Part shown: piece by piece, positions 13,266 through 52,729 of the stretch
How the letters are laid out: the number at the start of each line of letters is the position of its first letter
Numbering within the stretch: position 1 is the stretch's first letter
Source: Virgisporangium aliadipatigenens
GTDB lineage: Bacteria; Actinomycetota; Actinomycetes; Mycobacteriales; Micromonosporaceae
Assembly: GCF_016863615.1 (NCBI RefSeq)
Contig: NZ_BOPF01000018.1
Location: 62,001 to 126,000, forward strand
Length of the DNA: 64,000 bases
Direction: 5' to 3'
The notes under the pieces: generated by a model
Database searches by the model: none
Seen by the model: the letters and a program-made list of their open reading frames with translations, nothing else
What the model was told of the DNA's origin: nothing
Program-made: the position numbers and the translations under genes

Positions 13266-13286
13266 GATCGCCCCCGGCGGATGAAC
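13266..13286 (-). promoter_or_regulatory. Dyad site A (upstream of DUF6069 gene 13232)
   Basis: Halves GATCGCCC and GGATGAAC are separated by 5 bp; this is one of the weaker left halves. CAAGGT follows 20 bp downstream in the minus direction and ends 7 nt before the ATG. Confidence 0.5.
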
Positions 13287-13295
13287 TTCTCCTCG

Positions 13296-15728
13296 TCAGA
13301 CCAGGCCGAGTTCGCGGGCGCGGCGCACGGCCTCGTTGCGGCGGGTCGCCGAGAGCTTGCGCAGCACGCCGCGCACGTGGGTCTTGACGGTGTTCACCGA
13401 TACGAACATCGTCCGCGCGATCTCCTCGGTGGAGAACAGCTCGGAGAGGTACCGCAGCACCTCCCGTTCCTTCTCGGTGAGCGGCTCGACGACCAGCACC
13501 GCACCGCCGCCGGCCGAACGCGGCGGATACCCGCCGCCGGTGCGGGCCGCGCCGAGCCACGCGTGCCGTTCGGCCAGGCGGCGGTCGTGGCGCAGGAAGC
13601 GGCGCAGCGCGGCCGGGGACTCGGCGACGGGACGGCGCAGCTTCTCCGGTTCGGCCAGGCGCAGGGCGCGTTCGAGGGCGTCGCGGGCGGCGTCGAAGCG
13701 CCGGTCGGCCAGCGCGGCCGACGCGGTGGCGAGCCAGGATTCGACCCGCTGGGTCAGGGTGGCTTCGCCGCCCGCGGGAGTCGGGCGCGGGAGGGGGCCG
13801 TCGCCCGGCGCGTGCCGCAGGCGGGCCTCGACGGCGGCGAGCACACCGCCGCAAATCGGGTCGCCGGCGTGTGCCGCCGCGCGGTCGCGGTGCCGCCGCG
13901 CGGCGGCCGGGTCGCAGCGCTCGGTGTGCACCCAGGCGAGCGCGAGCGGCACCGCCGGCGGGAGGTCCGACGCGGACTGTCCTTTGTGGACGATGACCGC
14001 CTCGGCCCGATGGGCCAGTTCCGTGGCGTGGCGCAGGTGTCCGCGCAGCGCCTCCACCAGAGCCAGCCGGCCGAGGCAGTCGAGGTGCAGGTGCCGCGCC
14101 CCGTCGAGGGTCGTGGCGTCGAGCGCCTCGGCGGCCGCGTCCGCCGCCGCGCTCAGGTCGCCGGTGCGCAGCAGCGCCTCCGCCCGCGTCGCGCGCACCA
14201 GGGCCACCACGTCGGCGGGTACCCGCAGGCCCCGGGCCGTGGCGTCGGTCAGCAGCGCGGCGGCGGAGGCGGCGCAGGCCGTGGCGGCCATGTCGTCGCG
14301 GTCGCCCGTCGCGGCGGCGTGCAGTGCCCGTAGCGCCGCTGCGCACAGGCGCAGGGGCCAGCCGCTCTCGTCGTGGATCAGGCGTTCGGCGCTCGCGAGG
14401 TGGGCGCCGCAGGTGGCGGTGTCGCCGGTGCGCAGGGCGAGTGCCGCGTGCACGACGGCCGCCTCGGGGCCCGCGATGTCGGGCGGCATCGCCGCGAACC
14501 GGGCCGCGTACCCTTCCGCGCGCGGGCCGTGGCACAGCCGCGTGACGGCGAGGTCGGCGACCACGTGCGCGGCGGCGTCGGCCCAGTCGCCGGCGTTCGC
14601 GGCGTGGTGCGCGGCCTCGTCGAGCCGGCCGGCGTCGGCGTACCAGCGGGCGGCGGTGCGGTGCAGGGCGGCGGTGCGGTCCGGATGTTCGTGGCGCAGC
14701 CGGGTGCGCAGCACCTCGCGGACCAGCGGGTGGTAGCCGTAGGTGCGCGGGCCGGTGGCGCTGGTCGTGGTGAACGTGTTGGCGTGGGCGAGCCGGGCCA
14801 GCACGGTGTCCGCGTCGGGCCGGCCGCTCAGCGCGGCGGCGAGGCCGGGTGGGAGTTCGTCGACGAGGCTGGTGCGCAGCAGGAAGTCGCGGTCGCTGGG
14901 GGTCTGGGCGTCGAGCACCTCGGCGCCGAAGTAGCCGGCGATGTCGCCGTCGCCGTCGAGGCTGCCGTCGAGGAAGCGGGCCGGGTCGGCGTTGCGGCGC
15001 AGCGCGCGGGCGGCGAGGCGCAGGCCGGCCGCCCAGCCCCGGGTGGCCGCGCCGAGCGCCGAGGCGGCCGAGTCGGTCAGGTGCGCGTCGTGCGCGGCGA
15101 GCAGGGCCCTGGTCTCGTCCTCGTCGAACGCCAGGTCCGCCAGGCGCAGCTCGGTCAGGGAGCCGTCCATGCGGTACCGGTGCAGCGGCAGCGCGGGATC
15201 GGTCCGGGTCAGCACGACGAGGCGCAGCTGCGGGGCGGCGTGCGTGAGGAGGAACTCCACCGTCTCGGGCACCGGCCCGCGCGCGAGCGCCTCGGCGTGG
15301 TCGAGCACCAGGATCAGCGGCTGCGGCAGTTCCGACAGGGTGGCGGCCAGCCGGACCAGCAGCGAGCGCTCGACGGTGTCGGGATCGGTCGGGCCGGCGA
15401 GGTGGGGAATCTTGCCGGTGCCGCCGAACCCGGCCAGGATGTAGGACCAGAAGACGCCGGGACTCAGGCCGGCGTCGCCGACGTTCAGCCACACGTGCGG
15501 AAGGTCGGGCGCGGTGTCCAGCCACGAGCCCATGAGCACCGTCTTGCCGGTTCCGGCCGGTGCGCTGATCAGGGTCAGCGGCCCGTCGACCGCGCGGGCC
15601 ACGCGGTCGAAGAGCCGGGTGCGCGGGACCGTCCACGGTGGAGCGTCGGGCCTGCGCAGCTTGGCGGCCATCACCGGGTCGCCGGTCGGGGTCATCGGAC
15701 CGGGTGCTTCCTCAACCTGTACTGACAT
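13296..15728 (-). CDS. MalT-like LAL transcriptional regulator
   Basis: This 810-aa regulator has the MalT-type P-loop SAPAGTGKTV (about residues 54-63), Walker B LILVLDHAEAL and the MalT signature RTDPALPLHRYRMDG (about 155). A helical-repeat middle follows, then a C-terminal HTH: LTEKEREVLRYLSELFSTEE and VNTVKTHVRGVLRKL. The HTH and the RRNEAVRRARELGL tail closely match E. coli MalT in style. Two dyad sites lie upstream (15819 and 15866), so it may belong to, or control, the regulon described in the findings. GGAGTGAGG precedes the ATG. Confidence 0.9.
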   Translation of the reverse strand: MSVQVEEAPGPMTPTGDPVMAAKLRRPDAPPWTVPRTRLFDRVARAVDGPLTLISAPAGTGKTVLMGSWLDTAPDLPHVWLNVGDAGLSPGVFWSYILAGFGGTGKIPHLAGPTDPDTVERSLLVRLAATLSELPQPLILVLDHAEALARGPVPETVEFLLTHAAPQLRLVVLTRTDPALPLHRYRMDGSLTELRLADLAFDEDETRALLAAHDAHLTDSAASALGAATRGWAAGLRLAARALRRNADPARFLDGSLDGDGDIAGYFGAEVLDAQTPSDRDFLLRTSLVDELPPGLAAALSGRPDADTVLARLAHANTFTTTSATGPRTYGYHPLVREVLRTRLRHEHPDRTAALHRTAARWYADAGRLDEAAHHAANAGDWADAAAHVVADLAVTRLCHGPRAEGYAARFAAMPPDIAGPEAAVVHAALALRTGDTATCGAHLASAERLIHDESGWPLRLCAAALRALHAAATGDRDDMAATACAASAAALLTDATARGLRVPADVVALVRATRAEALLRTGDLSAAADAAAEALDATTLDGARHLHLDCLGRLALVEALRGHLRHATELAHRAEAVIVHKGQSASDLPPAVPLALAWVHTERCDPAAARRHRDRAAAHAGDPICGGVLAAVEARLRHAPGDGPLPRPTPAGGEATLTQRVESWLATASAALADRRFDAARDALERALRLAEPEKLRRPVAESPAALRRFLRHDRRLAERHAWLGAARTGGGYPPRSAGGGAVLVVEPLTEKEREVLRYLSELFSTEEIARTMFVSVNTVKTHVRGVLRKLSATRRNEAVRRARELGLV

Positions 15729-15818
15729 CGCGGTTCCTCACTCCGAGCGTTCGCGGGGCCGGGGACGGCTTCGCCGGGCGGGACGTTGGCGAGTCTGGCC
15801 AGTCGGGCAGGGGGCGGG

Positions 15819-15839
15819 CATCGTCCACATCGGGTGATG
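15819..15839 (-). promoter_or_regulatory. Dyad site B (upstream of LAL gene 15728)
   Basis: CATCGTCC and GGGTGATG are separated by 5 bp. Going toward the LAL gene, CAGACT occupies positions 22-27 after the site, as at the other promoters. The predicted leader is about 60 nt and carries its own ribosome site. Confidence 0.65.
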
Positions 15840-15865: not shown

Positions 15866-15886
15866 CATCACCCCCGGTTGGTGTGC
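15866..15886 (+). promoter_or_regulatory. Dyad-like site C (possible control of LAL gene 16101)
   Basis: A good left half CATCACCC is followed after 5 bp by a degenerate right half TGGTGTGC. A GATATT hexamer lies 17 bp downstream on the plus strand, which is 3-4 bp closer than at the other sites. Confidence 0.35.
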
Positions 15887-16046
15887 GGTGACCGTGAGAA
15901 TCCGATATTCGGACAATTGTCATTTATCTTGATCTATGTTCAATTTCGAATCCGGTAAGTCGCAAAAAGACCGGCTACTACCCAGAAAGGTATTGCCTTA
16001 AACGGCGTGTCGGGTTGAGATGGATCCACAACTGGTCTATGCATTC

Positions 16047-16073
16047 GGTCCCGTCGTTTCTCCCGACGGGACC
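16047..16073 (+). promoter_or_regulatory. 10-bp hairpin in the leader of LAL gene 16101
   Basis: Arms GGTCCCGTCG (16047-16056) and CGACGGGACC (16064-16073) are perfectly complementary around a 7-nt loop. The hairpin ends 27 nt before the preferred ATG. It could restrict ribosome access or act as an attenuator. If translation instead began at 16020 this would be coding. Confidence 0.5.
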
Positions 16074-16100
16074 CGGTGCCGGCATGTCCGGGAGTCGAGA

Positions 16101-18263
16101 ATGGAGCGCACCGACGCAGGACACGAAAGGCCCGGAAACCCACCCCACCCGGTTTTTCGCACCCGACTGATCAGACGTCTCTCCGCGCTGGCGGAAACCG
16201 TGCGGGTCGTCGTCATCGCGGCGGCCGCAGGATACGGCAAAACACTTGCCGTCGAGCAATGGATCCGCAGCGGCGCGGCGAATGCCGCGCGATTCCGTTT
16301 CACCGACCCGGACAACGCGCCGCGGATATTCATTCGCCGGCTCGCCGAAACCCTGGATGAGCCGGGCCCGCCGGAAAGCCTCGCGCCGGATGCCGCACTC
16401 GCCGGACTCCTCGACCGCACGTTGATCATCGACGACGCGCATCTCATCCGCCCCGGACCCGTGGCGGACCTGCTCGACGGAATCATCGCGCGCGCAATGC
16501 CGGGGCACCGGCTCGTCCTGGTCGGCCGTTCCCGGCCGGTGCTGCGCCTCGGCCGGCTGAGCGGAGCCGGGGGCCTCGCGGAGTTCGGCGCCGCGCAGCT
16601 CGCGTTCGACCACGAGGAGACCGCCGCGTTCCTGCGCTCGGTGGGCGTCCCGCCGAGCGAGGCGCTCGTGGAGGCGGTGCTGCGGCGCACCGAGGGCTGG
16701 GCCGCCGGCCTGCGGCTGGCCGCCACGGCGGTAGCGGAGCAGGCCGACCCGGTCGCCGTCGCGGACCGGTTCGGCGGGCACGACCGGCACGTCGCGGAGT
16801 ACTTCCGCGACGAGGTGCTGCGCGACGTGTCGCCGTCGGAGGTGCAATGCCTGCAGCGCTGCGCCGTGCTGGCGCGGATGTCGGGTGAACTCTGCGACGA
16901 GGTGCTCGGCGTCACCGGCTCCCAGGCCTGGCTCGACACCATGCACCGGCAGGGCCTGTTCATGTCCACATCGGACGGTGGCGACGGCTGGTACCGGTTC
17001 CATCCCCTGTTCGCCGAGACGCTGCTGGCCCGGCTGCGGCGCGAGGAGCCCGAACGGGAGCCGCACCTACGCGGCCGGGCGGCGGGCTGGCTGGAGAAGC
17101 ACCGGCTCCCGGAGAACGCCGTCGCCCAGGCGATCGTCGGCCGCGACCTGCACACCGCGGCCCGGATGGTCAGCACCTACGGCCACGACCTGCTCAACAC
17201 CGGCCGCGTCCACGTGGTGCGCGAATGGCTCCTGGCCCTGCGCAACGTCGTCGAGCACCACCGCCCGCTCGCCCTGACCGCCGCGTGGACCGAGGCGTTC
17301 TGCGGCAACCCGGCAGGCGCGCTGCGCGCGTTGCACGCGGCCGGACGCACCAGCGCCGCCGGCGAACCGGCCGTTCCCACCGCACGGCTGGCCATCGTGC
17401 GGGCGGCGTTCGCCGTCGACGGCGTGGAGCAGATGAGCACCGACGCCGGGTTCGGCCTCGACCTGGAGCCGCCCGGCGGCGCGTGGTACCCGTTGGCGGC
17501 GGCCTTCTTCGGCATCGGTCACCTGCTCGTCGGCGAGCCACGGCCGGCCGTGCGCGGCCTCGAGCGCGCGGTACACCTGGGCGGCGAGCAGCAGCCGGCG
17601 GTGGCGGCCCTCGCCCTGGCCGAGCTGTCCATGCTCGCGCTCGAACGCGACGACCGGTTCGTCTCCGACTCGTGCGTCAACGAGGCGTGGGAGCTGGTCG
17701 GCGATGCGGGCCTGCAGGACAACGTCTTCACGGTGCTCGTGCACGTGGCAGCGGGCCGGCTCGCGGCGGTGGACGGCGACGAGCCGGCGGCGCGCCGGCA
17801 CGTGTCGGCCGCCATGCGCCTGTACGCGTCGCCGTCCCCGGCGGCGTTCCCCTGGTTGGCGGTGCAGGCCAACCTCGGGCTCGCCCGGATCCTGCTCACG
17901 CTCGGCGAGACGCCGGACGTGGACCGCCGGCTCGCCGAGGCGCGGCGGCACCTCGCCCGGCTGTCGACGGCCGGCGTGCTCGACCGGGAGCTGGCCGCCC
18001 TCGCCGCGGAGGCGGAGTCCCGGCGTAGTGCGCACGCCGGCACCGCGCGTCCGTCCGGCTACGTCGGGGTGGCGTTGACGGCGGCGGAACTGCGGGTCCT
18101 CAAGTCGTTGCGGACCCACATGACCCTCGGCGAGATCGCCAGCGAGCTGCAGCTGTCCCGCAACACCATCAAGACGCAGGTGGCCTCCGTGTACCGGAAG
18201 CTCGACGCGACGACCCGCACCGAGGCCGTGCGTTGCGGGCGCAGCCTCGGCCTGCTCGACTGA
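16101..18263 (+). CDS. MalT-like LAL transcriptional regulator
   Basis: This 720-aa regulator has P-loop AAAAGYGKT (about residue 45), a short Walker B region (TLIIDDAHLI), helical repeats, and a C-terminal HTH: LTAAELRVLKSLRTHMTLGE and NTIKTQVASVYRKLDA. It is divergent from another LAL gene. The ATG at 16101 is preferred because GGGAG lies 6 nt upstream; the longer in-frame ATG at 16020 would turn a leader hairpin into coding sequence. Its first third uses more A/T-ending codons than its neighbours, which hints at a separate origin. It is convergent with the MFS gene, 1 bp apart. Confidence 0.85.
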   Translation: MERTDAGHERPGNPPHPVFRTRLIRRLSALAETVRVVVIAAAAGYGKTLAVEQWIRSGAANAARFRFTDPDNAPRIFIRRLAETLDEPGPPESLAPDAALAGLLDRTLIIDDAHLIRPGPVADLLDGIIARAMPGHRLVLVGRSRPVLRLGRLSGAGGLAEFGAAQLAFDHEETAAFLRSVGVPPSEALVEAVLRRTEGWAAGLRLAATAVAEQADPVAVADRFGGHDRHVAEYFRDEVLRDVSPSEVQCLQRCAVLARMSGELCDEVLGVTGSQAWLDTMHRQGLFMSTSDGGDGWYRFHPLFAETLLARLRREEPEREPHLRGRAAGWLEKHRLPENAVAQAIVGRDLHTAARMVSTYGHDLLNTGRVHVVREWLLALRNVVEHHRPLALTAAWTEAFCGNPAGALRALHAAGRTSAAGEPAVPTARLAIVRAAFAVDGVEQMSTDAGFGLDLEPPGGAWYPLAAAFFGIGHLLVGEPRPAVRGLERAVHLGGEQQPAVAALALAELSMLALERDDRFVSDSCVNEAWELVGDAGLQDNVFTVLVHVAAGRLAAVDGDEPAARRHVSAAMRLYASPSPAAFPWLAVQANLGLARILLTLGETPDVDRRLAEARRHLARLSTAGVLDRELAALAAEAESRRSAHAGTARPSGYVGVALTAAELRVLKSLRTHMTLGEIASELQLSRNTIKTQVASVYRKLDATTRTEAVRCGRSLGLLD

Positions 18264-18264
18264 G

Positions 18265-19734
18265 TCACCCCGAACGCGCGCCGGCCGCCACCGGCAGCGT
18301 GTGCGCCGAACCCGCGGCGGAAGCGGCGTCGTCGACCGTTCCGCGGTGGCGGTGGCGCAGTCGACCGGCGAACGCCGCCAGTGCGATACCCGCCGCCGAC
18401 ACCAGCGTCATGGCGAGCGCGCCACGGGAGAACCCGTCCGCACGCGCGTCGGCCGTCCCTCCACCGGCCGACGCGTAACAGGTCGCCGCGATCGCCGTCA
18501 GCACCGAGGCGCCCACGTAGCGGGCCATGTTCGAGATGCCCGACGCGGCACCGATGCGATCCGGCGGGACGACGGCGGTGGCGATCGCCGAGCACGGCCC
18601 GTTGGTGAACCCCATGCCGACCGCCGCCGCCACGAGCGGGAGCACGAACGCCGCGTACGTCCAGTCGGCGCCGGTCAGCACGAGCACGCCGAAGCCGGCG
18701 GTCGTTACCAGGAAGCCGAGGCTGATGACGGTGCGCACGCCGATCCGGGCACCGAGCCGGGTCACCAGCGGCGCGGTCACCACCAGGGCCAGGCTCACCG
18801 GCAGGGTCGCCACGCCGGCCTCCAGCGCGGTCATGCCCAGCGTCGCCGGATCCTGCGCGTAGACGCTGAACAGGTACATGAGGCCGTTCACCGTCCCGGA
18901 ACCGATGAGGATGCCCAGCGTCGCCGCCATCAGTGGCCGGTTGGCGAGCATGGACAGGTCGACGAGCGGGGCGCGCACCCGCCGTTCGACCGAGATGAAC
19001 GCGACCACGGAGGCGGCCGAGACGGCCAGACAGGCGAGGGTGGCGACGGACGCCCAGCCCCACTGCGGTCCCTCGGTGACGGCCAGGATCAGCGCGGCGA
19101 GCGCGGCGGCCACCAGCACCGTGCCGAGGAAATCCACGGTGCGGGCCCGACCCGGGTCGCGCGACTCCGGCACCGCGCGCAGCGTCAGCGGAACGCAGAC
19201 CAGCGCCACCGCGGCGTCGACCCAGAACAGCCCCTGCCAGCCGGTGGCCCCGACCAGCAGCCCGCCCGCGAGCGGGCCCACGGCGGCGCCCACCGCGGCG
19301 GCGGCACCCCACAGCGACACGGCCCGCATCCGCGGCGGCCCCGACGATCCGGCCGCGAGCAGGCTCAGCCCGCACGCCAGCAGCGTGGAACCGGCCGCGC
19401 CCTGCACCATCCGCCCGGCGACCACCCCGAACGCGTTGCCGGACAACGCGATCAGCACGCAGGAGGCGACGAAGAGCCACAGCCCGCACAGGAACAGCCG
19501 CCGGCGGCCGAAGATGTCGCCGAGCACCCCGGCCGTCACGATGACCGCGGCGCCGACGAGCGAATAGCCGGTGACCGCCCACTGCAGGGTGGACATCGAC
19601 GCGTCGAGGTCGGCGCCGATCGCGGGCAGCAGGATGGTGACGGCCGAGGTGTTGGCGTTGACGACCAGGGTGGCCAGGCACGTCACGACGAGCAGGCCGT
19701 TGCCCGGTCGCCGGTCCACCGCGGCGGCCGTCAC
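18265..19734 (-). CDS. MFS drug/peptide exporter (14-helix DHA2-like)
   Basis: The 489-aa transporter has about 14 hydrophobic helices. The MFS motif A region is GVLGDIFGRRRLFL, with the DHA2-type features LDASMSTLQWAVTGYSL near the N-terminus and AVGPLAGGLLVG in helix 5. GTG 19734 overlaps the stop of the M20 peptidase gene (GTGA), so the two are co-translated. Substrates of this subfamily are drugs, quaternary compounds or peptides. The coupling to a dipeptidase suggests movement of a peptide or amino-acid product, but that is inference. Confidence 0.87.
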   Translation of the reverse strand: MTAAAVDRRPGNGLLVVTCLATLVVNANTSAVTILLPAIGADLDASMSTLQWAVTGYSLVGAAVIVTAGVLGDIFGRRRLFLCGLWLFVASCVLIALSGNAFGVVAGRMVQGAAGSTLLACGLSLLAAGSSGPPRMRAVSLWGAAAAVGAAVGPLAGGLLVGATGWQGLFWVDAAVALVCVPLTLRAVPESRDPGRARTVDFLGTVLVAAALAALILAVTEGPQWGWASVATLACLAVSAASVVAFISVERRVRAPLVDLSMLANRPLMAATLGILIGSGTVNGLMYLFSVYAQDPATLGMTALEAGVATLPVSLALVVTAPLVTRLGARIGVRTVISLGFLVTTAGFGVLVLTGADWTYAAFVLPLVAAAVGMGFTNGPCSAIATAVVPPDRIGAASGISNMARYVGASVLTAIAATCYASAGGGTADARADGFSRGALAMTLVSAAGIALAAFAGRLRHRHRGTVDDAASAAGSAHTLPVAAGARSG

Positions 19735-21116
19735 CGCACCCGCCCCGGACCGTCCGATGTGGACAGACGGCTGAGGAACAGCGCCTCGGACAGGGCGATG
19801 CGCTCGATCTCGCGCGGGTCGACGCTCTCGTTCGGCGCGTGGATGAGGCACCTCGGCTCCTCCACCCCCATGATCATGATCTCGGCGTCCGGATAGGTCT
19901 GCTGCAACACGGTGCACAGCGGGATCGAGCCGCCCTGCCCCTGCGTCGCCAGCTCCTTGCCGTAGGCCGACTCCAGCGCCGCGCGCATCGTGGCGAACGC
20001 CGGCCCGTCCGTGCGGCCGGCGAACGGTTCGCCGAGCGCCTGGCGTTCCACCTCGACCGAGACGCCCCACGGGGCGACGGCCCGCAGGTGCGCGATCAGG
20101 GCGTCCTGCGCGAGCGCCGCTCCGGTCCCCGGCGGCACGCGCAGGCTGACCCGCGCACGCGCCTGCGCGGGAACGGACGCCGAGGACTCCGCCACCGACG
20201 GACAGTCGATCCCGAGAACCGTCACCGCCGGCCGGGCCCACAGCATGTCCGCCACCTCGCCGCTGCCGACGATGCCGACCCCCGGCCGCACACCGGCGTC
20301 CGCGCGGAACTGCCGCGCCGGATACGACACCCCGTCCCAGCGCCGGTGGACGTCCAGCCCCTGAACCGTCGTGTCGCCCGCGTCGTTGCGCAGCGACGCC
20401 AGCATGGCGATGAGCGCCGCGAGCGCGTCCGGCGCCGGCCCGCCGAACATGCCCGAGTGCACCGGGCCGTCCAGCGTCCGCACCGTCACGATGACGTTCG
20501 CCAGGCCGCGCAGCGTGGTGGTCAGCGTCGGCAGCCCGGCGGCGAAGTTGCCCGCGTCGCAGACCAGGATCGCGTCGGCGCGCAGCAGTTCGACGTTGTC
20601 GACGACGAACGCCTCCAGCCCGCCGGTGCCCTGTTCCTCGGAGCCCTCGGCGATCACCTTCACCCCGACCCGCCGGTCGGCGCCGAGCGCGCGCAACGCC
20701 GTCAGGTGCGCCACGATGTTGCCCTTGCAGTCCGCGGCGCCCCGGCCGTACCAGCGCCCGTCGCGAACGGTCAGGCTGAACGGCGGGCTCTCCCACGCCG
20801 CCTCGTCCAGCGGCGGCTGCACGTCGTAGTGGCAGTAGAGCAGCACCGTCGGCGCGCCCTCCCGCGCCGGCGCGTGCCCGTACACCGCCCGGCTGCCGTC
20901 CGGGGTCTCGTAGTCACGCACGTCCTCCAGTCCCACCGCCGCGAACGCGTCCATCAGGTACCGCGCCGCCTTCAGGCACTCGTCGGGTGGATAGAGCGCC
21001 GGATCGGCCACCGAACGGAACGCCACCAACGCGGCCAGGTCCTCCCGCGCGGCCGGCATCAGCCCCTGGACCCGGCCGCGCAACGTCGCCACGTCCGGGC
21101 GTGCTTCGACGGTCAT
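19731..21116 (-). CDS. M20 family metallo-dipeptidase
   Basis: The 461-aa zinc peptidase is of the CNDP/DapE-like M20 type. Metal ligands are seen in HYDVQP (His and Asp, about residue 95), GAADCKGN (bridging Asp), EGSEEQGTGG (catalytic and binding Glu), the CDAGN Asp and a C-terminal IHAPNE His. A dimerisation lid occurs in the middle. It should hydrolyse dipeptides or acylated amino acids in the cytoplasm. GAGGAGGG precedes the ATG. Dyad D lies upstream with GATGAT at the standard spacing. The next gene, an MFS exporter, is coupled, and an amino-acid permease is divergent. Confidence 0.9.
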   Translation of the reverse strand: MTVEARPDVATLRGRVQGLMPAAREDLAALVAFRSVADPALYPPDECLKAARYLMDAFAAVGLEDVRDYETPDGSRAVYGHAPAREGAPTVLLYCHYDVQPPLDEAAWESPPFSLTVRDGRWYGRGAADCKGNIVAHLTALRALGADRRVGVKVIAEGSEEQGTGGLEAFVVDNVELLRADAILVCDAGNFAAGLPTLTTTLRGLANVIVTVRTLDGPVHSGMFGGPAPDALAALIAMLASLRNDAGDTTVQGLDVHRRWDGVSYPARQFRADAGVRPGVGIVGSGEVADMLWARPAVTVLGIDCPSVAESSASVPAQARARVSLRVPPGTGAALAQDALIAHLRAVAPWGVSVEVERQALGEPFAGRTDGPAFATMRAALESAYGKELATQGQGGSIPLCTVLQQTYPDAEIMIMGVEEPRCLIHAPNESVDPREIERIALSEALFLSRLSTSDGPGRVR

Positions 21117-21177: not shown

Positions 21178-21198
21178 CTTCATCCACGGCGGGTGATG
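21178..21198. promoter_or_regulatory. Dyad site D (serves both divergent genes)
   Basis: CTTCATCC and GGGTGATG are separated by 5 bp. On the plus side GATGGT ends 6 nt before ATG 21232 (predicted leaderless). On the minus side GATGAT sits at the same distance from the site and gives the M20 gene a leader with a ribosome site. Confidence 0.7.
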
Positions 21199-21231: not shown

Positions 21232-22671
21232 ATGAGCTCAGATGCCGCAACCAGTGCCGGCGCCACGCGTGCCGGACCCGTGCGCAGAGCGGCCGCGCCG
21301 CAGTTCATCGCGTGGACCGCGCTGGCCTTCATGACGACGTCGTCGGTGGCCAGCCTCCGCCCGGCACCGACGATGGCGGTCTACGGACTCGCCTGCGTCT
21401 TCCTGTATCTCGTCCCGGCACTGGTGTTCCTGGTGCCGACGTCGCTCGTGTCGGCCGAACTCGCCTCCGGCTGGACCGGCGGGGTCTACAACTGGGTCAG
21501 CCGGGGCATCTCACCGAAGGCCGGGTTCCTGGCCGTGTGGTGCCAGTTCGCGATGACCATCTTCTACTACCCGAGCCTGCTGTCCTTCGTGGCCAGCACG
21601 TTGGCGTACGTGGTGGCGCCGGAACTGGCCAGCAACGGCGTCTACACGGCGATCGTCATCATCGCCGTGTACTGGCTGGGCGTGCTCGTCTCCTCCCGGG
21701 GCACGAAGGCGCTCGCCGGCCTCGCCAGCAGCGGCCTGTTCATCGGCACGCTGATCCCCGGCGTCGTGCTGGTCCTGCTCGGCGGCGCGTATCTCATGCG
21801 CGGCAACGCCTCCGCGGCCCCGATGGACAACGCGCACCTGCTCCCGGAATGGGCCGGACTCGCCAGCCTGGTGCTGATCGTCAACAACTTCCTCAGCTAC
21901 TCCGGCATGGAGATGAACGCCGTGCACGTGTCGTCGCTGCGCAAGCCGGGACGGGAGTTCCCGCGGGCGATGTTTCTCGCGATGGGGTTGGTGCTGGCCA
22001 TCTTCATCCTGCCGGCGCTGGCGATCAGCTGGGTGGTGCCGGCGGAGAGCCTCAGCCTCACGGCCGGGCTGATGCAGGCGTTCCAGGGCTTCTTCGCCGA
22101 GTTCGGCGTCGAGTGGCTCACCCCGGTGCTGGCCGTGATGATCGTGTGCGCCTCGCTGGGCGGCATGCTCACCTGGCTCGCCGGGCCCTCGAAGGGGCTG
22201 CTGCTGATCAGCCGGCAGGAGGGCTACCTGCCGCCGTTCCTGCAGCGGATGAACGCCCACGGCGTGCAGCAGAACATCCTGGTCTGCCAGGGCGTGCTGA
22301 CCACCGTGATCGCGCTCGCGTACGGGCTCATCCCGGACGTGTCGAGCGTCTACTGGATCTTCTCGGTGATGACGACCCAGGTGTACCTGATCATGTACCT
22401 GCTGATGTTCGTCGCGGCGGTGCGGCTGCGGCGGCGCGAGCCCGACACGCACCGCGGCTACCGGGCGCCGATGCTGGTGCCGCTGGCGGCCATCGGGTTC
22501 CTCGCCTCACTGGCGGCGCTGCTGATCGGGTTCGTGCCGCCGTCGCAGTTCGGGGGCGGGAGTCCGGTCGTGTACACGGCCATCGTCGGCAGCGGGATCC
22601 TCGTCATCGGGCTGCTGGTGCCGTTCCTGTTCTACCGCTTCCGCAAGCCGTCGTGGAAGGAGGCATCGTGA
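21232..22671 (+). CDS. APC-superfamily amino acid permease
   Basis: The 479-aa protein has about 12 membrane helices, with an APC-type start (PQFIAWTALAFMTTSSVASL), helix 2-3 GWTGGVYNWVSRGISPKAGF and SYSGMEMNAVHVSSLRKPGR, which resembles the glutamate:GABA antiporter (GadC-like) branch. It is preceded by dyad D and a GATGGT hexamer 6 nt before the ATG. No ribosome site is present, consistent with a leaderless message, and this favours ATG 21232 over the in-frame ATGs at 21193-21196. Its stop overlaps the next gene. Confidence 0.87.
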   Translation: MSSDAATSAGATRAGPVRRAAAPQFIAWTALAFMTTSSVASLRPAPTMAVYGLACVFLYLVPALVFLVPTSLVSAELASGWTGGVYNWVSRGISPKAGFLAVWCQFAMTIFYYPSLLSFVASTLAYVVAPELASNGVYTAIVIIAVYWLGVLVSSRGTKALAGLASSGLFIGTLIPGVVLVLLGGAYLMRGNASAAPMDNAHLLPEWAGLASLVLIVNNFLSYSGMEMNAVHVSSLRKPGREFPRAMFLAMGLVLAIFILPALAISWVVPAESLSLTAGLMQAFQGFFAEFGVEWLTPVLAVMIVCASLGGMLTWLAGPSKGLLLISRQEGYLPPFLQRMNAHGVQQNILVCQGVLTTVIALAYGLIPDVSSVYWIFSVMTTQVYLIMYLLMFVAAVRLRRREPDTHRGYRAPMLVPLAAIGFLASLAALLIGFVPPSQFGGGSPVVYTAIVGSGILVIGLLVPFLFYRFRKPSWKEAS

Positions 22672-24166: not shown

Positions 24167-24187
24167 CATCACCCGCGCCGGATGGGG
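24167..24187 (-). promoter_or_regulatory. Dyad site E (upstream of DUF6069 gene 24134)
   Basis: CATCACCC and GGATGGGG are separated by 5 bp. GATCCT lies 20 bp away and 6 nt before the GTG start. Confidence 0.65.
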
Positions 24188-24203: not shown

Positions 24204-24224
24204 CTTCATCCGCCGCAGATGGTG
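24204..24224 (+). promoter_or_regulatory. Dyad site F (upstream of whiB-like gene)
   Basis: CTTCATCC and AGATGGTG are separated by 5 bp. AAGGGT follows 20 bp downstream on the plus strand. The predicted leader of about 35-40 nt contains the GGAAGGAG ribosome site of the whiB-like gene. Confidence 0.6.
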
Positions 24225-40450: not shown

Positions 40451-40471
40451 CATCACCCGGCGCGAATGAAC
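40451..40471 (-). promoter_or_regulatory. Dyad site I (upstream of operon 40389-36616)
   Basis: CATCACCC and GAATGAAC are separated by 5 bp. GAGCAT occupies positions 21-26 toward the minus-strand operon. No hexamer at that distance was seen on the plus side. Two extra GATGAG half-sites lie between it and the gene. Confidence 0.62.
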
Positions 40472-43057: not shown

Positions 43058-44421
43058 GAGACCGGATCGCGCAGCAGCGGGCAGGTCATGCAGTGCCCGC
43101 CGCCGCGGCCCTTGCCCAGTTCGAAGCCCTCGATCGTGAGCACCTCGATGCCGGCCGCCCGCATGCGCTCCACGGTGTGCGTGTTGCGCTCGTAGGCGAT
43201 GACGACGCCGGGTTCGATCGCGACGACGTTGTTGCCGTCGTCCCACTGTTCGCGCGCCTGCTGGTACTCGTCGCCGCCGGTCTCCACGACCCGGATCCGG
43301 TCCAGGCCGAGCGCGTCGGCCACCGCCGTGAGCAGATCCGGTTCCCTTGTCACGTGGAACGTCCCGGCGCGCGGCCCCGGCCGCAGGCTGATCGCGCGCA
43401 CGTTGTCGACGACCTTCGGGTACAGCGTGACGGTGTCCCGGTCGAGCATCGTGAACACGGTGTCGAGGTGCATGTGCGCCCGGTCCCGGCCCATGGCCAC
43501 GGCGATCACCCGTTCCGCCGCGCCGGCGTCGAAGAGCGCACGCGCCAGCTGCTCGATCATCCGCGACTGGGTGCGCTCGCTCAGTCCGATGAGGACGGTC
43601 CCGTTGCCGATCGGCTGCACGTCGCCGCCCTCCAGCGTCGCGCGGCCGAAGTCGTCGGCGCGGAACCGGTCGCCCTCGCCGAGCGGCGGATACCAGTACT
43701 CGAACTTCGCGTCCGCGAACATCGGGTGGTAGCGGTAGATCGCCGCGACGTTGTACGCCTCGAGCCTTCTGGCCCGCCAGTACATCGGATTGATCGAGAC
43801 GCCGCCGTAGATCCAGCACGAGGAGTCCCGCGTGAACAGCGTGTTGGGCAGCGGCGGCAGCACGAACGCGTTCGGGTCGGTGAGCGCGGCCGCCACGAGC
43901 GACGTGCCCCGGTGGCGTTCCAGCGGAATGCCGGCCTCGGCGACGGTCAACCCGCCGACGAGATGCGTGGCGAGGTCGCGGGCCGACAGGAGGTCGAGGA
44001 CCGAACGGACCTCGTCGACGAGCGAGAGCCCCACGGTGTACTCCGAGGCGACCAGCTCGATCAGCCGCCGCCGCCCCTGCGCACTCGCGCCGAGGGCCTC
44101 GGCGAGCAGGTCGACGACGTGGTACACCTCGACGCCACGGGAGCGCATCAGCGCGACGAACGCGTCGTGCTCGGCCTGCGCCCGTTCGACCCAGAGCACG
44201 TCGTCGAAGAGGAGCTCGTCGTGGTTGCCGGGGGTGAGCCGGCGCAGGCTCAGGTCCGGGCGGTGCACCAGCACCTTGCGCAGCCTGCCGACCTCGGAGT
44301 GGACACCGAAGCTGCTCTCTGTTGCCCGCGCAAGCCCGGGCCGGCGCTCTGTGGCGCCGTCTTCCCTCGTCGCTGCGCTCCTCGGTCCAGACGGCGCCGC
44401 GCCGTCCCGGGGCGCGCTCAT
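43054..44421 (-). CDS. arcA: Arginine deiminase
   Basis: This enzyme converts arginine to citrulline and ammonia. The 455-aa protein shows [33 protein letters not shown] and the catalytic Cys in [14 protein letters not shown] near the C-terminus. The first 37 residues (Pro/Arg/Gly-rich) are extra relative to the family, whose homology starts at [18 protein letters not shown]. This extension includes a REP-like inverted repeat (44353-44398). GAGGAG precedes ATG 44421, which overlaps the carbamate kinase stop, and no alternative start lies closer to the conserved region. Confidence 0.93.
44353..44398. repeat. REP-like inverted repeat inside arcA N-terminal extension
   Basis: Arms GGCGCCGTC and GACGGCGCC (9 bp) flank 28 nt that contain TCGCTGCGCTC. 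The same 11-mer occurs at 49775 and 61361. Its position in the non-conserved start of arcA suggests an insertion kept in frame. Confidence 0.6.
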
Positions 44422-45356
44422 CTCTGCTCCTCTCGTACCAAAGCCTTTTCCGGGACGACCTGGGTGCCGGCGTCGCCCGCCACGAGCGCGGCGACGTCGC
44501 GCAGCGCCCCGATGACGGCCCGGTTGCCGGTGTGCTCCACGAAGCGGACGGCGGCGCGCACCTTCGGCCCCATCGAGCCGGCGGCGACCGGCAGGCCGTT
44601 CAGGTCGGCGGGGCACACCCGGACGAGGCGGCGCTGGCGGGGCGTTCCCCAGTCGGTGTAGACGCCGTCGACGTCGGTGGCCATCACGAGCAGGTCGGCG
44701 TCGACCGCCCGGGCGAGCAGTTCACTGGTGAGGTCCTTGTCCACGACGGCCTCCACGCCGACGGCCGCGTCGGTGCCGTTTCCCGGCAGGGTCGGGATCC
44801 CGCCGCCACCGGCGCAGATCACCACCACGTCGCGGTCGAGCAGCCAGCGGATCGGCCGGATCTCGCGGATCCGGCGGGGTTCGGGGGAGGGCACGACCCG
44901 CCGCCAGTGCGTGCCGTCCGGACGGAACTCCCACCCGGTCTGTGCGGCCAGCCGCCGTGCCTCCTGCGCACCGAGGATCGCGCCGATGAACTTCGTCGGA
45001 TCGGCGAAGGCGGGATCCTCCGGGTCCACCTCGACCATCGTCAGCAGCGTGGCGAGCGGCACGGTCGGCGGGAGGGCGCCCCGCAGCTCCTGTTCGAGCA
45101 GGTAGCCGATCATGCCCTCGGTCTGCGCGCCCAGCACGTCGAGCGGATACGGGGCCGATTCGCTGTAGGCGGTGGACTGCGCCGCCAGCAGGCCCACCTG
45201 TGGGCCGTTGCCGTGCGACAGCACCAGTTGGTGTTCGGCGGAGACCGCGCGCAGCCCCGGTGCGGCCGCGCGGATGTTGGCCCGCTGGGCGTCGGCGGTC
45301 AGCGGTTCGCCCCGCCGCAACAGGGCATTGCCGCCGAGGGCCACGACGACTCGCAT
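44418..45356 (-). CDS. arcC: Carbamate kinase
   Basis: This enzyme makes ATP from carbamoyl phosphate and ADP, the energy-yielding last step of the arginine deiminase pathway. The 312-aa protein has [43 protein letters not shown] at the end and a nucleotide-binding [13 protein letters not shown] (about residue 187). Length and motifs are typical. It is 3 bp from the preceding OTC gene and overlaps arcA. Confidence 0.95.
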
Positions 45357-45359
45357 CGT

Positions 45360-46361
45360 TCAGCCGCCCAACGTGGCGACCATGACCGCCTTGATCGTGT
45401 GCATGCGGTTCTCCGCCTGGTCGAAGACGACGGAACGGTCGGACTCGAACACGTCGTCGGTGACCTCCAGCGCGTCGAGCCCCTCGGCCCGGAAGATGCG
45501 TTCGCCGACGGCCGTGTCGCGGTTGTGGAACGCCGGCAGGCAGTGCATGAAGCGCACCCGCGGATTGCCGGTGCGTCGGACCGTCTCCGCGTTGACCTGG
45601 TACGGGCGCAGCAGCCGGATCCGTTCGCGCCATACGCTCTCGTCCTCGCCCATGGAGACCCACACGTCGGTGTAGAGGAAGTCGACGCCGCGCACCCCGC
45701 GGTCGACGTCGTCGGTGAGCGTCAGCCGGGCACCGGTGTCCTGGGCGATGTCGCGGCACGTCTTGACCAGCTTCTCGTCCGGCCACAGCGCCTCCGGCGC
45801 GCAGATGCGCACGTCCATGCCGAGCTTCGCGCCGATGACCAGCAGCGAGTTGCCCATGTTGTTGCGGGCGTCGCCGAGGTAGCAGTAGGCGATGTCGGTG
45901 ATGCTGCGGTCGCAGTGCTCGCTCATGGTCAGCACGTCGGCGAGCGTCTGCGTCGGGTGGAACTCGTCGGTGAGGCCGTTCCACACGGGCACGCCGGCGT
46001 AGCGGGCGAGCGTCTCGACGGACTCCTGCGCGAAGCCGCGGTACTCGATCGCGTCGAACATCCGCCCCAACACCCGGGCGGTGTCCTTCATGGACTCCTT
46101 GTGCCCGATCTGGGAGCCGGTCGGTTCGAGGTAGGTGACGTGCGCCCCCTGGTCGTGCGCGGCGACCTCGAACGCCGCACGGGTGCGCGTCGAGGTCTTC
46201 TCGAAGATGAGGGCGATGTTCCGGCCGGCGAGGCGGGGCTGCTCGTAGCCGCCGTACTTGGCGTCCTTGAGGTGTGCCGCGAGCCGCAGCAGGAAGCGCA
46301 GTTCCCCCGGGGTGAAGTCGAGTTCGGTGAGCAGTACGCGGTTGCGCAGGTTGAACGACAT
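45360..46361 (-). CDS. arcB: Ornithine carbamoyltransferase (catabolic)
   Basis: The 333-aa enzyme has the carbamoyl-phosphate motif STRTR (about residue 57), HPTQTLAD (about 134) and the ornithine motif [10 protein letters not shown]. It acts in the pathway direction citrulline to ornithine plus carbamoyl phosphate, inferred from the gene set. AAGGGAA precedes the ATG. It lies 15 bp after the P-type ATPase stop, too short for a promoter, so it should be expressed with the ATPase. Confidence 0.95.
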
Positions 46362-46376: not shown

Positions 46377-49073
<2,697 letters not shown>

Positions 49074-49105: not shown

Positions 49106-49126
49106 CCTCATCCCGTCCGGATGAAC
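49106..49126 (-). promoter_or_regulatory. Dyad site J (upstream of ATPase-arc operon)
   Basis: CCTCATCC and GGATGAAC are separated by 5 bp. GACAGT lies 20 bp away and 6 nt before the ATG of the ATPase gene. Confidence 0.7.
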
Positions 49127-49843: not shown

Positions 49844-49864
49844 GCTCATGCGGCCCGGATGATG
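49844..49864 (+). promoter_or_regulatory. Dyad site K (upstream of membrane protein 49897)
   Basis: GCTCATGC and GGATGATG are separated by 5 bp. GATCCT occupies positions 22-27 and ends 5 nt before the GTG start. Confidence 0.65.
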
Positions 49865-50410: not shown

Positions 50411-51397
50411 TCAGCGCTCGCCGGCCAGGAACGGCCCGGCCCAGCGGGTCGCCGGATCGGCGTCGACCAGCAGCGCCTTCACCAGCAGCGTCAGCGGAAC
50501 GGCCAGCAGCGCGCCGAGCGGCCCGAGCACCCAGCCCCAGAAGACCAGCGACAGGAACGACACCGTCGCCGACAGGCCCACCGCGTCGCCGACGACCTTC
50601 GGCTGGATCACCGACTGGAGCACGAAGTTGACGACGCTGTACAGCACGATCACCGTGACCAGCAGCCGCGGCCCGCCCTCCAGGAGTCCGAGCAGAGCGG
50701 GCGGGACGAGCCCGACGACGAAGCCGACGTTCGGCACGTAGTTGGTCACGAACGCGAGCAGCCCCCACAGCACCGGCAGCGGAATGTCGAGCGCCCACAG
50801 CACCGCGGTGTCCACCACCGCCACCACGAACCCGAACGCCGTGCACACCACCAGATACCGGCGCGTCCCCCGGGCGAACCGGCGCAGTGCGCCCACCGGG
50901 TCGGGGCGCCGGGCGGCGAGGAGTTCCAGGCGGTGCGGGAACCACGCGAGGTCCATCGCCATGAACAGCGCGACCGCCAGCAGCAGCACCACGCCGCTGA
51001 GCACGCCGAGCGTTCCGCCGAGCACGTCCTGCGCCAGCCGGGCGACGGTCTCCGGCGGGATGCCGAGGCGCCGTAGCGCATCCGGCAGCGCCGCGAACTC
51101 CGCCTCGTACCGGGGCAGCAGGTTCGCCAGGCGCGCGACGGACAGGGCGAGGCTGCCGATCAGCAGGATCAGTCCGGTGTGGACGGTCGCGACGGTGGCT
51201 GCCACGGCGAGCCAGTCCTTGGCGCCGCGCCGGCGCAGCCAGGCGGTGAACGGGCTCACCGCGACGGTGATCACCAGCGCGCAGAGGACCGGCCCGGCGA
51301 GCGGGGCGGCCGCGTGCAGGCCGGCGACGGTGATCACCGCGCAGGCGGCGCCGAGCAGCAGGACCACGCCGCCGGGCAGCGCGTGACGACGTTCCAT
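50411..51397 (-). CDS. AI-2E family transporter (PerM/TqsA-like)
   Basis: The 328-aa protein has about eight helices with a central hydrophilic region and the family's C-terminal motif PVLWGLLAFVTNYVPNVGFV followed by LLVTVIVLYSVVNFVLQSVI and IQPKVVGDAVGLSATVSFLS. The family moves small organic molecules or Na+/H+; autoinducer transport is known only for a few. It lies 7 bp after the ThrE-like gene on the same strand. Confidence 0.88.
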   Translation of the reverse strand: MERRHALPGGVVLLLGAACAVITVAGLHAAAPLAGPVLCALVITVAVSPFTAWLRRRGAKDWLAVAATVATVHTGLILLIGSLALSVARLANLLPRYEAEFAALPDALRRLGIPPETVARLAQDVLGGTLGVLSGVVLLLAVALFMAMDLAWFPHRLELLAARRPDPVGALRRFARGTRRYLVVCTAFGFVVAVVDTAVLWALDIPLPVLWGLLAFVTNYVPNVGFVVGLVPPALLGLLEGGPRLLVTVIVLYSVVNFVLQSVIQPKVVGDAVGLSATVSFLSLVFWGWVLGPLGALLAVPLTLLVKALLVDADPATRWAGPFLAGER

Positions 51398-51404
51398 CGG
51401 AAAA

Positions 51405-52637
51405 TCACCTCCCGCGACGGCCGGCGAGGCCGCGGTAGAGCGACGCGCCGCAGAGCACGCCGAGCGCGATGGCGATGACCGACGCGAGCGGCTGCACCAG
51501 ATCCTGCGGATTGGCGGCGGTCGGGTCGGCGACCGCCCGAGTGACCCCGACGAGCCCGCCCGCGCCCGGCACCAGCAGCCAGAACGCCGGCAGGAACGTC
51601 ACCTGCGACGGCGGCCCGCCGGGCAACCGGGAGACGGCGAGCGCGACCGGCGTCATGGCGAGCGCGCCGAGGAACCCGCTGACCGCGGCACCGGCGATCC
51701 GGTCGCCGAGCAGCCGGCCCAGCCAGGCCGCGAGAAGAACGACCAGCAGCCACCGCAGCGCGCCGCGCGGCGCCGAGAAGTGCACCGCGACGGCGACCCC
51801 GAAGACCAGCAGCCCGACCCACGGCGCCCACCAGCCGAGCCCACCGCCCGGCGACGGCAGGTCGATGTCCTCTCTGGACAGTCCGACGAGGTCGGCCCCG
51901 GCCACGATGCCGAACGCCAGCAGCAGCAACTGGAACGTGCCCCACACGACCCGGCTCGCCCCGGACACCATCTCGCCCGAGGCCAGCTCCACGGTCGCCG
52001 TGGTGAGCGCACTCCCCGGCAGGAACGTCATCAGCGGCACGATCAGCGTCCGCAGGCCGGGATCGGCGATGCCCGACCGGACGGCCTGGAAGGTCAGCGC
52101 CGACACGAGGACCGCCGACACGACCGGCACGAGCAGCACCAGACTGCGCCGCCCGCGCGCGAACCGCACCAGCACCGCCACCACGGCGCCGAGCCCGGCC
52201 ATCACGCCGATCTCCGCCGGTGCGGCCCCCACCATCAGGCACAGGCCGACGGTCATCGCCGTGTAGCCGAGCACCGAGAGCAACCGCCCGTAGCGCGGCC
52301 GCAGGTCGCGGATCGCCCGGACCCGGCGCAGCCCCTCGACGGGGTCCAGCGCGCCCGACTCGGCCGGCGTCACGATGTCGTACAGCGCGGAGACCTGGTC
52401 CAGGCGCAGCGGTGCGGAGAGCCGGGGCACGGCCTCGACGCTGGTCGGCCCGGCCGGCCCGAGCGTGATGACGATCGCCGTCGGCAGCACGATGATGCGC
52501 GCGTCGCCGGCATGGTTCGCCGCGGCGATGCGCATCAGGCGCTCCTGCGTCTCGCTGACCGCGGTGCCGGCGAGGTTCAGCGCCCGGCCGACCTCCACCA
52601 CGAACGCGTGCAACGCCGCGGCGTCCGGCTCGGCCAC
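51405..52637 (-). CDS. Threonine/serine exporter family protein (ThrE-like)
   Basis: The 410-aa protein has a soluble N-terminal domain (FVVEVGRALNLAGTAVSETQ) and ten helices, a fusion of the YjjP-like (ThrE_1) and YjjB-like (ThrE_2) parts. FLPGSALTTATVELASGEMV and LVPGAGGLVGV are typical. GTG 52637 follows GGAG; the in-frame upstream start would place palindromes and dyad L near or in the coding region. It is probably co-transcribed with the AI-2E gene. Confidence 0.85.
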   Translation of the reverse strand: MAEPDAAALHAFVVEVGRALNLAGTAVSETQERLMRIAAANHAGDARIIVLPTAIVITLGPAGPTSVEAVPRLSAPLRLDQVSALYDIVTPAESGALDPVEGLRRVRAIRDLRPRYGRLLSVLGYTAMTVGLCLMVGAAPAEIGVMAGLGAVVAVLVRFARGRRSLVLLVPVVSAVLVSALTFQAVRSGIADPGLRTLIVPLMTFLPGSALTTATVELASGEMVSGASRVVWGTFQLLLLAFGIVAGADLVGLSREDIDLPSPGGGLGWWAPWVGLLVFGVAVAVHFSAPRGALRWLLVVLLAAWLGRLLGDRIAGAAVSGFLGALAMTPVALAVSRLPGGPPSQVTFLPAFWLLVPGAGGLVGVTRAVADPTAANPQDLVQPLASVIAIALGVLCGASLYRGLAGRRGR

Positions 52638-52708
52638 TGGCAGCTCCGTCCCATCGCGTCCACTGTGGAGAGTGCACTGTGGAGGGTCGCCGACGGCGTG
52701 CCGTCCCG

Positions 52709-52729
52709 CATCATCCCTTCCGGATGAGC
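52709..52729. promoter_or_regulatory. Dyad site L (between divergent ThrE-like and 96-aa genes)
   Basis: CATCATCC and GGATGAGC are separated by 5 bp. On the minus side GACCCT occupies positions 21-26. On the plus side a GATCCT is 4 bp closer than usual, so control in that direction is less certain. Confidence 0.65.

What the first reader, a model, noticed from the sequence alone, without database searches (positions are those of the whole stretch)
13266..52729. A 21-bp dyad marks nearly every promoter in a 40-kb stress/transport island
By eye I find 12 intergenic copies of CATCAYCC-N5-GGATGANG (imperfect halves allowed) at 13266, 15819, 15866, 21178, 24167, 24204, 34542, 35687, 40451, 49106, 49844 and 52709. 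They precede DUF6069, LAL, M20/MFS, permease, WhiB-PP2C-LAL, DUF1269/SHOCT, glutamate-cysteine ligase, amidotransferase, P-type ATPase-arc, ThrE/AI-2E and probably NhaC genes. None was found upstream of the genes at 0-12.6 kb or 54.6-64 kb. Toward 13 starts the hexamer NANNNT begins 20 or 21 bp after the dyad edge (GATCCT, GATGAT, GACAGT, CAGGCT, GATGGT and others). In DNA this GC-rich, repeated A at position 2 and T at position 6 is very unlikely by chance. The dyad centre then falls near -43, where class II activators bind. I know of no described actinobacterial regulon with this box.
Basis: partly seen in the sequence, partly recalled or inferred. Interest (0 to 1): 0.92.

Follow-up and report, generated by a model that had tools for sequence, protein, structure and literature searches.

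The report
MalT-type regulon in a soil actinomycete
The repeated DNA sign in front of many neighbouring genes is real and most likely the docking site of a MalT-like activator protein, a gene-control circuit already described in the related bacterium Actinoplanes; what seems new is how widely it occurs and that the docking site appears to change with the activator's type.

Summary
The dyad is real. All 12 sites are where reported, all intergenic, and far above chance: 10 intergenic copies of TCAYCC-N5-GGRTGA with at most 1 mismatch, against a mean of 0.06 in shuffled intergenic DNA. A -10-like NANNNT starts 20 or 21 bp after the dyad in 13 of 17 window directions and in 244 of 402 promoter sequences pooled with relatives, against about 19 at random offsets. 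The activator-site reading is well supported.

The claim that no such actinobacterial regulon is described is wrong. Droste et al. 2020 (PMC7567727) report TCATCC-5nt-GGATGA overlapping the -35 region of 17 start sites in a 51-gene region of Actinoplanes sp. SE50/110, activated by the LAL protein MalT; 9 of the 10 genes in its Table 1 have family-level counterparts here. The window is a new Virgisporangium member of that regulon; the likely regulator is the LAL gene at 13296-15695.

Beyond the paper: the dyad occurs beside MalT-like LAL genes in Streptomyces, Kutzneria and Kribbella; the half-site base (GGATGA or GGGTGA) follows the HTH subclass; this genome's regulator is of another lineage than its congeners'. 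Binding and regulation here are inferred.

The parts
13266..13286 (.). dyad 1, upstream of DUF6069 gene 12696-13232 (-)
   Evidence: NANNNT CAAGGT at offset 20
15819..15839 (.). dyad 2, upstream of LAL-A (13296-15695, -): probable autoregulatory site
   Evidence: upstream dyads (score 11.5 or more within 400 bp) in 13 of 16 named ILRKL-class loci
15866..15886 (.). weak dyad 3, towards LAL-B (16020-18263, +)
   Evidence: leave-one-out rank 22; not found; no NANNNT at 20/21
21178..21198 (.). dyad 4 between divergent M20 peptidase/MFS and amino-acid permease operons
   Evidence: NANNNT on both sides
24167..24187 (.). dyad 5 towards the operon 23682-24134 (weak DUF6069 match) and DUF308 (-)
24204..24224 (.). 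dyad 6 towards the WhiB-SpoIIE-LAL-C operon (+)
34542..34562 (.). dyad 7 towards the PLDc_N-domain gene 34125-34547 (-) and the operon after it; the called start of that gene lies inside the dyad and is probably too early
   Evidence: exact TCATCC-N5-GGATGA
35687..35707 (.). dyad 8 between GCS2 (-) and class II amidotransferase (+)
   Evidence: NANNNT on both sides
40451..40471 (.). dyad 9 between 39868-40389 (-) and M24 aminopeptidase (+)
   Evidence: NANNNT on the minus side only
49106..49126 (.). dyad 10 towards P-type ATPase, OTC, carbamate kinase, arginine deiminase, permease (-)
   Evidence: GACAGT at offset 20
49844..49864 (.). dyad 11 between peptidoglycan-binding gene (-) and 49903-50388 (+)
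   Evidence: NANNNT on the plus side only
52709..52729 (.). dyad 12 between ThrE/AI-2E operon (-) and 52819/Na+:H+ antiporter operon (+)
   Evidence: NANNNT on the minus side only
13296..15695 (-). LAL-A, MalT-like LuxR/STAND activator, proposed regulator; HTH KTHVRGVLRKLSATRRNEAVRRAR
   Evidence: best fold match an E. coli maltose-system entry, 8bob_C
16020..18263 (+). LAL-B, divergent LAL with GerE HTH
   Evidence: long branch in the tree
26373..28928 (+). LAL-C, MalT-like LAL (TPR_MalT, GerE), YRKL class
28935..31208 (-). LAL-D, LAL paralogue without the HTH
   Evidence: weak TPR_MalT match, no GerE
19731..21092 (-). M20 peptidase
21280..22671 (+). amino-acid permease
24296..24625 (+). WhiB-like protein
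25613..26335 (+). SpoIIE/PP2C-type phosphatase
35702..36595 (+). class II glutamine amidotransferase; true start probably near 35771, where the protein reads MCRWLAYSG
   Evidence: start inferred from the need for Cys at position 2 (recalled)
40585..41703 (+). M24 aminopeptidase P-like protein
41723..46361 (-). arginine deiminase pathway: permease, ADI, carbamate kinase (AA_kinase match, named by context), OTC
46377..49073 (-). P-type cation ATPase
50411..52637 (-). AI-2E family transporter and ThrE exporter

Best explanation
The dyad is the operator of a MalT-type LAL activator. Two MalT boxes (GGRTGA) face each other across exactly 5 bp. The most likely binder is LAL-A (13296-15695), a STAND ATPase with a LuxR-type HTH. 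In the model, a signal plus ATP lets it assemble, a pair of HTHs sits on the dyad centred near -43, over the missing -35 element, and recruits RNA polymerase to promoters that have only a NANNNT -10 hexamer 20-21 bp downstream. It also activates itself and, through the WhiB-SpoIIE-LAL-C operon, a second LAL. [quoted passage not shown] SE50/110. Shown here: the sites, spacing, promoter geometry, gene content and co-occurrence with LAL-A. Inferred: binding, activation, signal.
For: Published in a relative: the same motif, -35 overlap, malT deletion and overexpression effects. Gene content: 9 of the paper's 10 Table 1 genes have a family-level counterpart here. Half-site equals the MalT box GGA[TG]GA. 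Spacer: 120 of 132 inverted half-site pairs with spacers 0-15 in the 80 LAL-chosen loci have spacer 5. Promoter geometry: NANNNT at offset 20 in 165 and at 21 in 81 of 402 sequences, 7.4 expected per offset; 244 of 355 when only the dyad nearest each target is kept. Co-occurrence in 150 family genomes: 16 with LAL-A, median 12 strand-wise sites; 134 without, median 1; p = 8e-11. All 10 genomes with 3 or more exact TCATCC-N5-GGATGA places carry LAL-A. Half-site base follows HTH subclass. Fold: best PDB match of the LAL-A model is 8bob_C, an entry on regulation of the maltose system.
Against: No binding or expression data for this organism. LAL-A is only about 40% identical to the congeners' MalT-like LAL and lies outside their clade, so it may not be their orthologue. 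Three HTH-bearing LALs share the island, so the assignment to LAL-A is not unique. G030, G031 and G110 have LAL-A but few sites (3-5), and G031 has more control than real hits; G080, G105 and G106 have 7-9 sites without LAL-A. As far as I recall, E. coli MalT boxes do not form a 5-bp-spaced palindrome. Genomes share ancestry, so the p-values overstate independence; the LAL-A cut (787 bits and above; next 647) was set by me after seeing the gap.
Confidence: 0.87

Rival explanations
1. The dyad is bound mainly by LAL-C or LAL-B rather than LAL-A, or the LALs share it.
For: LAL-C (26373-28928) and LAL-B have HTHs and sit in the island. Dyads also occur beside YRKL-class (LAL-C type) genes in relatives: 65 dyads against 1 control hit in 187 kb. 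The window's half-sites are a mixture (14 A, 8 G).
Against: The genomes richest in the exact dyad all hold an ILRKL-class LAL, whose loci use A-rich half-sites as the window does; YRKL loci use GGGTGA. In Actinoplanes deletion of the second LAL is said to have had only slight effects (unpublished data cited in PMC7567727).
Confidence: 0.12
2. The site belongs to a BldM-like (NarL family) response regulator, whose group I box TCACcCgnncGgGTGA has almost the same half-site.
For: Half-site TCACCC/GGGTGA shared (PMC4125116 passages).
Against: BldM half-sites are 4 bp apart; spacer 4 occurs 0 of 132 times in the LAL-chosen loci against 120 for spacer 5. None of the 39 called island proteins gave a response-regulator match in Pfam. 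Co-occurrence points to LAL.
Confidence: 0.03
3. A DosR/OsdR-like dormancy regulon, as the stress-type gene content suggested.
For: Similar flavour of genes (P-type ATPase, stress and membrane proteins).
Against: OsdR box is AGGGCCGATCGGCCCT (PMC5069765 passages), unlike the dyad.
Confidence: 0.01
4. A repeated hairpin, terminator or mobile palindrome without regulatory role.
For: It is an inverted repeat with a short loop.
Against: Fixed NANNNT distance in 244 of 402 promoter sequences, placement before starts (296 of 309 intergenic dyads have a facing start within 300 bp; no chance expectation computed), and only weakly conserved spacer bases.
Confidence: 0.02

Closest known systems
[quoted passage not shown] SE50/110 (Droste et al. 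2020, PMC7567727)
   Same: TCATCC-N5-GGATGA box over the -35 region; LAL genes inside the region; amidotransferase, permeases, arginine deiminase, OTC, carbamate kinase, dipeptidase, ThrE, aminopeptidase P; large region of mixed, poorly annotated genes.
   Different: Window has four LAL-like genes (one without HTH) and a WhiB-SpoIIE-LAL-C operon; its LAL-A falls outside the clade that holds Pseudosporangium ferrugineum, a species the paper compares; no cyclic-nucleotide-binding match among the 39 called island proteins (the paper has one, ACSP50_3924). Maltose dependence untested.
E. coli MalT and the MalT box GGA[TG]GA
   Same: Half-site sequence; STAND ATPase with LuxR-type HTH; activator overlapping the -35 region.
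   Different: Here the boxes form a palindrome with a 5-bp spacer; no maltose genes seen in the island by my annotation.
BldM group I box of Streptomyces (PMC4125116)
   Same: Half-site TCACCC/GGGTGA.
   Different: Spacer 4 instead of 5; different regulator family.

Membership tests
MalT regulon / MRLGR of Actinoplanes | TCATCC-5nt-GGATGA upstream of many genes of one region | tested here: met
   12 intergenic sites in 40 kb; 3 are exact TCATCC-N5-GGATGA, the rest variants
MalT regulon / MRLGR of Actinoplanes | Motif overlaps -35, its 3' end 34.4 +/- 1.0 bases from the start site | tested here: inconclusive
   No start-site data. -10-like hexamer at offset 20 or 21 in 13 of 17 directions gives about 34-35 bases if the start lies 6-7 bases after the hexamer (assumption)
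MalT regulon / MRLGR of Actinoplanes | Characteristic genes (paper's Table 1, 10 genes) | tested here: met
   9 of 10 have a family-level counterpart; no cyclic-nucleotide-binding match in the 39 island proteins scanned
MalT regulon / MRLGR of Actinoplanes | Regulator orthologous to ACSP50_3915 | tested here: inconclusive
   ACSP50_3915 itself was not available. LAL-A shares the ILRKL HTH class but lies outside the 18-row clade with P. ferrugineum and both congeners (100/99)
MalT regulon / MRLGR of Actinoplanes | Loss of expression on malT deletion; induction on maltose | not testable with these tools
   needs experiments
MalT-type LAL (STAND) regulators | P-loop ATPase, MalT-like helical repeats, C-terminal LuxR HTH | tested here: met
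   GerE 4e-14; AAA_16 only below its cut-off; no TPR_MalT match for LAL-A (LAL-C has one). Helical repeats and relation to MalT rest on the fold match: 8bob_C E 8e-16 and MalT domain III 1hz4 E 3e-4, TM 0.24-0.51 (model pLDDT 75, pTM 0.59)
BldM group I box | Half-sites 4 bp apart (16-bp palindrome) | tested here: not met
   spacer 5, not 4
OsdR/DosR regulon | AGGGCCGATCGGCCCT-like 16-bp palindrome | tested here: not met
   one search compared by eye with the window sites

The most novel reading that the evidence does not exclude
MalT-type LALs across the Actinobacteria read one operator design, inverted MalT boxes with a fixed 5-bp spacer centred near -43, and the third half-site base is set by the HTH subclass: LALs with VR(S/G)(I/V)LRKL use mostly GGATGA, those with YRKL at that place use GGGTGA. 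In this Virgisporangium the regulator was replaced by, or diverged into, a Kutzneria/P. aksuensis-like lineage while the operators stayed.
Probability: 0.5. Interest if true: 0.6.

Novelty: new member of a known kind. Interest (0 to 1): 0.4.

Why it matters
LAL regulators are numerous in actinomycetes and few have a known operator. A shared, readable operator would let regulons be predicted from sequence in Streptomyces and others, and would put recurrent genes of unknown function (DUF2252, DUF1269, PLDc_N, DUF308, DUF7144 families) under a common control. For the window itself, the value is mainly confirmation and extension of a published regulon.

Tried and rejected
OsdR/DosR as the regulator: rejected on box sequence. 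BldM: rejected on spacing. The first family-wide LAL search with LAL-C gave its best hits in genomes poor in the exact GGATGA dyad and looked contradictory; it resolved when the dyad-rich clusters turned out to hold LAL-A relatives and LAL-C-type loci proved to have the GGGTGA form. My first HTH filter missed most LALs, and another found an HTH in only 29 of 80 named loci; redone, which still left 3 of 80 loci (L168, L173, L205) without a found HTH. Own-genome dyads outside the island (5 examined): two lie inside genes (L016, L023), none has NANNNT at offset 20 or 21 on either side, and the one neighbour similar to a target (L125) faces the wrong way; set aside. PMC8914203 motif with a DUF1269 gene: a T-rich motif, unrelated. 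Paper searches for MalT-like plus Streptomyces plus TCACCC and DUF1269 plus LuxR plus Streptomyces found none.

Biases: the Micromonosporaceae clusters were fetched because they held spacer-5 dyads or LALs, so their own spacer count (80 of 93) is biased; the 80 named loci were chosen by LAL protein only. Loci L148, L154 and L162 duplicate regions of G043 and G024; they are in the counts but were dropped. Gene calls are from my own GC-frame script.
Full report
Observation. The pattern search gave 23 strand-wise matches with up to 3 mismatches, against 2.67 +/- 1.69 in shuffles; 11 of the 12 listed sites are among them, 3 matches fall at two other, coding places, and the 12th site (15866) is the weakest. 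All 12 lie between genes, in a window where 3475 of 64000 bases are intergenic by my gene call. With at most 1 mismatch to TCAYCC-N5-GGRTGA there are 10 intergenic and 1 coding copy, against a mean of 0.06 in shuffled intergenic DNA. In the whole genome (10.29 Mb, 112 contigs) 82 places fit with at most 1 mismatch, 6 for the reversed control; 11 lie in this window. A looser pattern gave no genome-wide excess (27 against 29 control). A model built from the sites ranks 10 island places among the 17 distinct best places in the genome (circular for those sites).

Promoter geometry. Pooling the window with relatives, 165 of 402 distinct downstream sequences have it at offset 20 and 81 at offset 21, 7.4 expected per offset; 244 have one of the two, against 19.4 +/- 4.2 at random offsets. 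Keeping only the dyad nearest to each target gives 244 of 355. Two of the five single dyads between divergent genes (21178, 35687) have the hexamer on both sides.

What it is. Droste et al. 2020 (PMC7567727; I read parts 1-5 of 6 of the text, not the supplements) describe a 51-gene maltose-regulated region in Actinoplanes sp. SE50/110. TCATCC-5nt-GGATGA was found before 17 start sites, 34.4 +/- 1.0 bases from them, overlapping -35. Deletion of the LAL gene malT lowered 42 of 51 genes and overexpression raised 39. The authors note the match to the E. coli MalT box and find the region partly in other Micromonosporaceae, including Pseudosporangium ferrugineum. The window has family-level counterparts of 9 of the 10 genes in their Table 1: amidotransferase, two permeases, arginine deiminase, OTC, carbamate kinase, M20 dipeptidase, ThrE and M24 aminopeptidase. 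None of the 39 called island proteins matches a cyclic-nucleotide-binding family, the tenth. 14 of 35 window island proteins have a relative in the 22-kb P. ferrugineum locus L203. The window genome is of the same genus as G024, whose contig C102 has the length of, and shares dyads with, NZ_BOPH01000102.1 of Virgisporangium ochraceum.

Which regulator. Four LAL-like genes lie in the island. The dyad clusters I fetched from ten other genomes of the family each hold a LAL with the HTH KTHVRSILRKLxAxRRNEAV, the closest class to window LAL-A (13296-15695), which reads KTHVRGVLRKLSATRRNEAV. In 150 family genomes, 16 have a LAL-A match of 787 bits or more and a median of 12 strand-wise sites; the other 134 have a median of 1 (p = 8e-11; within one genus 10 against 4 genomes, p = 0.0035, counts). 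Exceptions: G030, G031 and G110 have LAL-A but only 3-5 sites, and G031 has more control than real hits; G080, G105 and G106 have 7-9 sites without LAL-A. All 10 genomes with 3 or more exact TCATCC-N5-GGATGA places have LAL-A. A dyad scoring 11.5 or more lies within 400 bp upstream of the LAL in 13 of 16 named ILRKL loci, in 6 of 57 YRKL loci and in 2 of 4 others. The AlphaFold model of LAL-A (pLDDT 75, pTM 0.59) matches best 8bob_C, titled structural basis for negative regulation of the maltose system, at E 8e-16 (chain taken to be MalT, recalled; TM 0.28/0.51, rmsd 18), and further down MalT domain III, 1hz4.

Wider distribution. In 80 named loci chosen only by LAL protein similarity, 185 dyads pass the PWM cut, 168 of them intergenic, in 72 of the 80 loci; none passes with the reversed matrix (three loci duplicate G043 or G024 regions). 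They include Streptomyces, Kutzneria, Kribbella, Kitasatospora and Actinoplanes. In 8 whole genomes behind these loci, 12 of 39 exact places fall inside the roughly 22-kb LAL loci, about 0.2% of the DNA (counted by hand from coordinates; none for S. scabiei). Spacer 5 accounts for 120 of 132 inverted pairs and spacer 4, that of BldM (PMC4125116, passages), for none. Recurrent targets by similarity cluster, with the family of a scanned member: PLDc_N (37 loci), DUF2252 (25), DUF7144 (20), the LAL itself (20), DUF308 (20), DUF1269 (18), DUF6069 (13), and an unnamed family in 16 loci whose scanned member had no Pfam match.

Half-site and HTH class. Per locus or genome, the fraction of half-sites with A (GGATGA) has median 0.65 in 11 Micromonosporaceae ILRKL units and 0.00 in the 26 of 29 YRKL loci of the same family that have dyads (p = 3e-6); among named loci 0.63 in 14 ILRKL and 0.00 in 58 of 60 others (p = 6e-11). 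Outside the family, ILRKL loci in Kutzneria, Kribbella L147 and a Micrococcales MAG also carry A, while Kribbella L135 has none (0 of 4). The units are not independent and classes are clades, so this is correlation.

Regulator lineage. In the tree window LAL-A groups with Paractinoplanes aksuensis (100/97) and Kutzneria (96/93), outside an 18-row clade (100/99) that holds V. ochraceum, the other congener and P. ferrugineum. Some island proteins are 60-81% identical to the congeners' (for example 18265, 19731, 21280, 32168, 40585) while LAL-A is 38-39%; others are low too, such as the P-type ATPase at 44-45% and ThrE at 45-47%. Replacement of the regulator with operators kept is one reading; old paralogy with differential loss is another.

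Novelty. The regulon type is published, so the window is a new member. I found no report of the Streptomyces/Kutzneria/Kribbella extension or the half-site correlation in searches, which cover open-licence papers only and were read as listings. Other papers were seen as passages only: PMC5069765, PMC9628970, PMC3282765, PMC4125116, PMC8914203 (and its section 21).

Noticed in passing
window 2510, 4897, 15632, 23645, 25607, 28659, 32961, 34703, 36602, 37555, 39711, 46768, 52659; whole genome: Palindrome TCCACNGTGGA is iterated about every 5 kb in coding and non-coding DNA: 13 exact copies in the window; with at most 1 mismatch 23 against 2.1 expected. The genome holds 828 copies against 0 for the reversed control; two congeners 681 and 570; of 16 other family members 4 have 201-514 and 12 have 6-63; most of 12 genomes from the wider order have 1-33. 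It resembles a HIP1-type highly iterated palindrome (recalled); unexplained.
   Followed up: partly
window 28935-31208 (-): LAL-D, a paralogue of LAL-C (about 41% identical) that ends before the HTH and abuts LAL-C tail to tail; a possible sensor-only or decoy protein.
   Followed up: no
window 121-2921 (-): RamC-like class III lanthionine synthetase (RamC_N, kinase, LANC_like) with a 47-codon ORF 2778-2921 that could be its precursor peptide.
   Followed up: no
window 35702-36595: The called start of the class II amidotransferase lies inside the dyad; the MCRWLAYSG stretch (Cys2 nucleophile, recalled) implies a start near 35771.
   Followed up: partly
L062-L090: 26 of 29 short loci around YRKL-class LAL genes of other genomes of the family carry dyads within about 1.5 kb of the gene, mostly with GGGTGA half-sites.
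   Followed up: partly
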